Shown in pieces: positions 46,447-48,878 of a stretch of DNA of 64,000 nt (position 1 is the stretch's first letter; each line of letters opens with the position of its first letter). The notes under the pieces are model-generated. The model did not search any database and was not told the origin of the DNA. It saw nothing but the letters and a program-made list of their open reading frames with translations. Source of the DNA: Thermococcus chitonophagus. GTDB taxonomy: Archaea > Methanobacteriota_B > Thermococci > Thermococcales > Thermococcaceae. The translations under genes were made by a program, and so were the position numbers. The DNA lies in the NCBI RefSeq assembly GCF_002214605.1, contig NZ_CP015193.1, positions 1,592,978 through 1,656,977 on the forward strand. The letters run 5' to 3'.

Positions 46447-48878
<2,432 letters not shown>

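What the first reader, a model, noticed from the sequence alone, without database searches (positions are those of the whole stretch)
48324..48326. Single amber codon breaks the type I (Cst) cas8 gene while everything around it is intact
In-frame TAG 184 codons into cas8. The frame is open for 184 codons before and 263 after, with cas8-like sequence on both sides. A point mutation, not a frameshift, is the simplest cause. Adaptation genes, Cas3, Cas5, Cas7, Cas6 and the whole Cmr set look intact, so the strain may have lost type I interference but kept type III-B. Alternatives are readthrough or a split Cas8 that still assembles. GGAGG overlaps the stop, but no start codon follows in frame nearby.
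Basis: seen in the sequence. Interest (0 to 1): 0.75.

Follow-up and report, generated by a model that had tools for sequence, protein, structure and literature searches.

The report
Nonsense-broken cas8 with surviving internal Cas11
[quoted passage not shown] the mutation itself is ordinary, but comparing relatives showed that this gene carries a conserved hidden second start for the small subunit and seems to begin at a highly unusual start codon.

Summary
The amber codon is real: TAG at 48326-48324 (-), in frame in a Cas8b/Cst1 gene, with one family profile running across it. None of 32 other aligned loci has an in-frame stop. The two closest have GAG (Glu) there; elsewhere the residue varies. 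No CUA tRNA was found and the stop falls mid-helix in a predicted fold, so readthrough or a working split protein is unlikely. Purifying selection on both sides implies a recent loss of the large subunit; a sequencing error cannot be excluded. Loss of all type I interference is only partly supported: outside the window the genome holds a second type I-B effector set and a III-A system, though that locus's own cas6 and csx1 are broken. Two by-products are more interesting. (1) A perfectly conserved internal GGAGGTG-N6-TTG (ATG in one), 33/33 loci, marks a Cas11b start downstream of the amber, so the small subunit should survive. (2) cas8 itself seems to start at ATC (25), ACG (3, including this strain) or ATA (1), always six bases after G(A/G)GGTG, in 29 of 30 Thermococcales loci; two have no ATG/GTG/TTG before the conserved core.

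The parts
48324..48326 (-). amber codon TAG inside cas8b (Cst1); GAG (Glu) in the two nearest relatives
48327..48899 (-). 5' part of cas8b, 191 codons from the proposed ACG start; holds both CxxC pairs and the GVP (PAM-type) loop
   Evidence: GVP loop by comparison with PMC11096372
48897..48899 (-). proposed non-canonical start codon ACG of cas8b
   Evidence: inferred from comparison; not shown by experiment
48906..48912 (-). Shine-Dalgarno GGGGGTG, six bases before the ACG; overlaps the end of cmr6
47532..48323 (-). 3' part of cas8b, 263 codons plus stop TGA
47889..47895 (-). internal Shine-Dalgarno GGAGGTG for Cas11b
   Evidence: identical in 33 of 33 loci
47532..47882 (-). predicted Cas11b small subunit, 116 aa from internal TTG 47882-47880
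46447..47535 (-). cas7 (Cst2/DevR), intact
45813..46478 (-). cas5 (Cas5t), intact
43642..45825 (-). cas3 (HD + helicase), intact
43122..43664 (-). cas4, intact
42150..43118 (-). cas1 (I-B type), intact
41607..41930 (+). cas2
48903..59253 (-). cmr6, cmr5, cmr4, csx1, cmr3, cmr2, cmr1 and cas6, all full-length
40944..41183 (-). CRISPR array, 4 repeats
5322..5954 (+). CRISPR array, 10 repeats of the same family

Best explanation
A recent single-base nonsense mutation has inactivated the large-subunit product of a type I-B (Cst, I-B2 group) cas8b gene. Shown: the stop, its absence from the other aligned loci, the intact neighbours, the intact internal start. Inferred: ribosomes starting at the weak ACG codon make only a 191-residue fragment that keeps the zinc-binding and PAM-loop region but lacks the middle and the C-terminal bundle, so no working Cas8 joins Cascade and this complex cannot recognise DNA targets or recruit Cas3. 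The small subunit Cas11b is translated separately from the internal GGAGGTG-N6-TTG downstream of the amber and should still be made, as should Cas7, Cas5 and Cas3. crRNAs of the shared repeat family remain usable by the intact Cmr (III-B) complex, and a second type I-B set plus a III-A set lie elsewhere in the genome.
For: TAG in frame with one family profile across it. The 32 other aligned loci have no stop; nearest two have GAG. dN/dS across the 3' part, own against L002, is 0.043, equal to 0.044 for L002 against L023, so the 3' part was under full constraint until recently. No CUA tRNA among 45. The break falls at residue 192 of the nearest relative, inside predicted helix 184-201. No in-frame start with a Shine-Dalgarno until codon 138 after the stop. 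Cas11b site: GAG and GTG codons invariant in 33/33 and the start TTG in 32/33 (ATG in the last) although synonymous codons are common elsewhere; 4 of only 5 single-codon columns among 236 are clustered here. Neighbours intact. Second type I-B and III-A set.
Against: No reads or second isolate were available, so a base-calling error cannot be excluded. The low dN/dS would also be expected if the 3' part were still used beyond Cas11b. No expression data.
Confidence: 0.8

Rival explanations
1. Base-calling or assembly error: the gene is intact in the organism.
For: Only one assembly was seen; the gene is otherwise under strong constraint. The same genome shows other broken CRISPR genes in the second locus.
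Against: The change is a substitution outside any homopolymer, and the genome is a single 1.96 Mb contig, 99.9% complete. The lesions in the second locus include missing segments, which are not typical base-calling errors.
Confidence: 0.1
2. Split Cas8: the 191-residue fragment and a C-terminal fragment are made separately and assemble into a working large subunit.
For: GGAGG overlaps the stop; the 3' part shows no relaxed selection.
Against: No in-frame start with proper spacing follows; the first in-frame start is 69 codons on and has no Shine-Dalgarno. The break is in the middle of a predicted helix. No relative is split there.
Confidence: 0.04
3. Programmed or suppressor-tRNA readthrough of UAG gives some full-length Cas8.
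For: The frame stays open and constrained behind the stop.
Against: No CUA anticodon among 45 tRNAs found; the stop is not conserved and its position is variable. In archaea stop-codon readthrough is described only for selenocysteine and pyrrolysine in the review PMC8211752.
Confidence: 0.04
4. For the start codon: cas8 begins at an ordinary codon further in (the TTG at 48878 or the GTG at 48872), and the spaced ATC/ACG motif is coincidental.
For: A TTG exists at the Leu of LDEFL in own and several relatives.
Against: The same Leu is CTG, CTA, CTT, TTA or ATA in others and has no Shine-Dalgarno, and the segment is missing in L012, L013, L016 and L024 while the spaced motif stays. 852 codons between motif and core hold no stop. 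L013 and L016 have no ATG/GTG/TTG before the core.
Confidence: 0.1

Closest known systems
Cas8b/Cst1 (TIGR01908), type I-B (formerly I-G or Tneap; I-B2 in Pyrococcus furiosus)
   Same: Profile match over 308 positions, CxxC pairs, operon cas8-cas7-cas5-cas3-cas4-cas1. Functional in P. furiosus according to PMC7192623; P. furiosus listed as Cas8b group 2 in PMC13199841.
   Different: Large subunit interrupted by an amber codon.
Cas11b made by internal translation of cas8b (Haloferax volcanii, PMC11899642; Synechocystis, PMC11096372)
   Same: In-frame internal start in the 3' end of cas8b giving a helical protein of 116-134 residues.
   Different: Here the site is a perfect GGAGGTG-N6-TTG; Haloferax uses ATG with a weak GGATG. 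Not shown by experiment here. Structure search gave no significant match, only type I-A small-subunit-sized chains as the best TM-scores.
Archaeal gene with an inferred ATC start: L12ae of Staphylothermus marinus (PMC2678158)
   Same: A start codon other than ATG/GTG/TTG inferred from homologues.
   Different: Here the codon sits at fixed spacing from a strong Shine-Dalgarno in 29 loci and varies among ATC, ACG and ATA.

Membership tests
Cas8b/Cst1 large subunit (type I-B) | match to TIGR01908 above the curated cut-off | tested here: met
   229 bits joined against cut-off 19.4; each half also passes
Cas8b/Cst1 large subunit (type I-B) | two CxxC pairs | tested here: met
   CEIC and CSHC in own; C116, C119, C156, C159 invariant in 30 relatives
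Cas8b/Cst1 large subunit (type I-B) | neighbouring cas7 (Cst2), cas5 (Cas5t), cas3 | tested here: met
Cas8b/Cst1 large subunit (type I-B) | one uninterrupted reading frame | tested here: not met
   TAG at 48326-48324: it is a broken member
Cas8b/Cst1 large subunit (type I-B) | crRNA-guided DNA interference | not testable with these tools
   needs a plasmid interference assay
Cas11b from internal translation | internal ribosome-binding site and start near the 3' end of cas8b | tested here: met
   33/33 loci; synonymous sites frozen
Cas11b from internal translation | helical bundle of small-subunit size | tested here: met
   116 aa, five helices, pLDDT 88
Cas11b from internal translation | structural match to a solved small subunit | tested here: inconclusive
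   no E below 0.001; highest TM-scores (0.47-0.60) are type I-A Cascade chains of 108-133 aa
Cas11b from internal translation | protein detected in cells | not testable with these tools
   needs Western blot or mass spectrometry
Pyrrolysine-type UAG recoding | tRNA with CUA anticodon | tested here: not met
   none among 45 tRNAs

The most novel reading that the evidence does not exclude
In Thermococcales type I-B, cas8 is a two-product gene whose large subunit starts, by conserved design, at a poor codon (AUC, ACG or AUA) behind a strong Shine-Dalgarno, while the small subunit starts at an internal UUG with the same strong site and spacing. The poor codon would hold Cas8 low relative to Cas11 and help set Cascade stoichiometry. 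The amber is then a natural separation-of-function mutant: no Cas8, Cas11 kept.
Probability: 0.6. Interest if true: 0.65.

Novelty: new variant of a known kind. Interest (0 to 1): 0.45.

Why it matters
The amber alone is a routine loss of one CRISPR effector. The by-products matter more. Annotation of this cas8 rests on a guessed start, and reconstitutions without Cas11b may have lacked a subunit (from my knowledge of the P. furiosus in vitro work, which was not held and not read here). A conserved non-canonical start codon in archaea would be unusual: the review PMC8211752 (2021) states that non-canonical translation in archaea had been demonstrated only in elongation and termination. Both claims can be tested directly in genetically tractable Thermococcales.

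Tried and rejected
Self-targeting as the cause: the 42 spacers of the shared-repeat arrays match nothing in the genome but their own arrays at E 0.01; the 18 spacers of the second-locus array were compared only with the fetched stretches and matched only themselves. The whole Cas8 model against PDB gave no match; profile searches of PDB sequences gave nothing credible. A DNA search of plasmid records found nothing. Papers on the P. furiosus Cst complex itself were not held. Polarised lineage counts were too saturated to show or exclude relaxed selection. The upstream GTG inside the Shine-Dalgarno as start of cas8 was rejected: in seven loci an in-frame stop lies between it and the core.

Full report
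The observation. TAG lies at 48326-48324 on the minus strand, in frame in a gene that runs from just behind the Cmr6 stop to 47532. The part before and the part after match adjoining stretches of one family, TIGR01908, Cas8b1/Cst1.

Uniqueness. A search of 151 genomes found the protein in 34; own is the only near-complete copy with a stop, though G071 holds a short remnant with two stops. In an alignment of 33 loci (own included) the aligned codon is GAG in the two nearest relatives and codes for E, K, R, G, N, H, D, S or A in the rest, so the residue is not critical and the stop is not a shared feature. GAG to TAG is one substitution.

Age and alternatives. Between own and the nearest relative the 3' part has dN/dS 0.043; between two intact relatives it is 0.044 (dS is high, so this only says the loss is not old). 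No tRNA with a CUA anticodon was found among 45; tRNA-Trp was not in that list, so the list is not fully complete. In an AlphaFold2 model of the nearest relative (pLDDT 81) the position is residue 192, inside helix 184-201. No in-frame start with a Shine-Dalgarno follows until codon 138 after the stop. A read error remains possible.

Hidden small subunit. Scanning all 33 loci for internal initiation sites gave one common to all: GGAGGTG, six bases, then TTG (ATG in one), 116-134 codons before the end. Of 236 columns with a conserved, degenerate amino acid only five use one codon throughout, and four of them are E-GAG, V-GTG, L-TTG and D-GAT at this site; the base before GAG is G in all 33 even where the residue changes. 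By my arithmetic, four of five in a given run of six columns has a chance of about 6e-7. The product from own folds as a five-helix bundle; PDB matches are not significant, but the best TM-scores are type I-A small-subunit-sized chains. Internal translation of Cas11b is known in Haloferax (PMC11899642) and Synechocystis (PMC11096372). The second Cas8b of this genome and its five Pyrococcus relatives also shows an internal G(A/G)GGTG-type site five bases before TTG, GTG or ATG, 91-94 codons from the end. So the amber should spare Cas11b.

Start of cas8. In 29 of 30 Thermococcales loci (the exception is L026) a G(A/G)GGTG is followed after exactly six bases by ATC (25), ACG (3: own, L002, L023) or ATA (1), in frame with the conserved WTGHPF core; one Archaeoglobi-type locus (L037) has ATG at that spacing. 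In seven loci an in-frame stop lies between the Shine-Dalgarno and this codon, so translation cannot come from upstream; in two loci (identical there) no ATG, GTG or TTG exists before the core. The 852 codons between this codon and the core contain no stop, and synonymous changes exceed non-synonymous ones per site in most close pairs. Elsewhere in about 150 kb of these genomes the same Shine-Dalgarno near an ORF start is followed by an ordinary start codon; the exceptions are cas8 and sites 31-43 codons inside genes. G003 and G006 have cas6, not cmr6, upstream of cas8, and keep the motif. I conclude that AUC/ACG/AUA initiation is likely, not proven. aIF1 of Pyrococcus is known to proofread initiation (PMC6237735), so such a codon would be expected to be weak.

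Consequences. In the window cas1-cas5, cas6, cas7, the Cmr set and Csx1 are full-length. Outside it, G000 C1:163-183 kb holds csm1-5, a second cas8b (92% identical to that of G003), cas7, cas5, a 19-repeat array with a different repeat, cas1, cas4, cas3 and a CARF-PIN gene. Its own cas6 lacks a middle piece and its csx1 is broken, while G006 has an intact csx1 there. Two other cas6 genes are intact. So the strain has lost the Cst large subunit, probably keeps III-B, and may or may not keep type I interference through the second set.

Noticed in passing
window 48897-48912 and cas8 loci L002-L030: cas8b of Thermococcales appears to start at ATC, ACG or ATA exactly six bases after a strong Shine-Dalgarno, in 29 loci.
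   Followed up: yes
window 47880-47895 and 32 other loci: Perfectly conserved internal GGAGGTG-N6-TTG/ATG in cas8b, a candidate Cas11b start with frozen synonymous sites.
   Followed up: yes
L122 (G000:C1:163001-183000): Second type I-B plus III-A locus with its own repeat family (GTTTCCGTAGAACTCAATAGTGTGGAAA); its Cas8b also has a conserved internal start, five bases after a GGTG-type Shine-Dalgarno.
   Followed up: partly
L122:5425-6543 and L131: csx1 of the second locus is broken by frame changes and a missing piece, and its cas6 lacks a middle segment: three broken CRISPR genes in one genome.
   Followed up: partly
L132, L133 against window 48903-58586: The whole cmr/csx1 block sits between cas6 and cas8 in this strain; in G003 and G006 cas6 is directly followed by cas8 without cmr.
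   Followed up: partly
window 39082-39178: Two degenerate CRISPR-like repeats beside an ATPase gene (39168-40496), away from the intact array.
   Followed up: no
L126:5978-7370 (G000:C1 about 992.9-994.3 kb): A helicase gene with weak Cas3-like matches split over several frames, near a CRISPR array.
   Followed up: no
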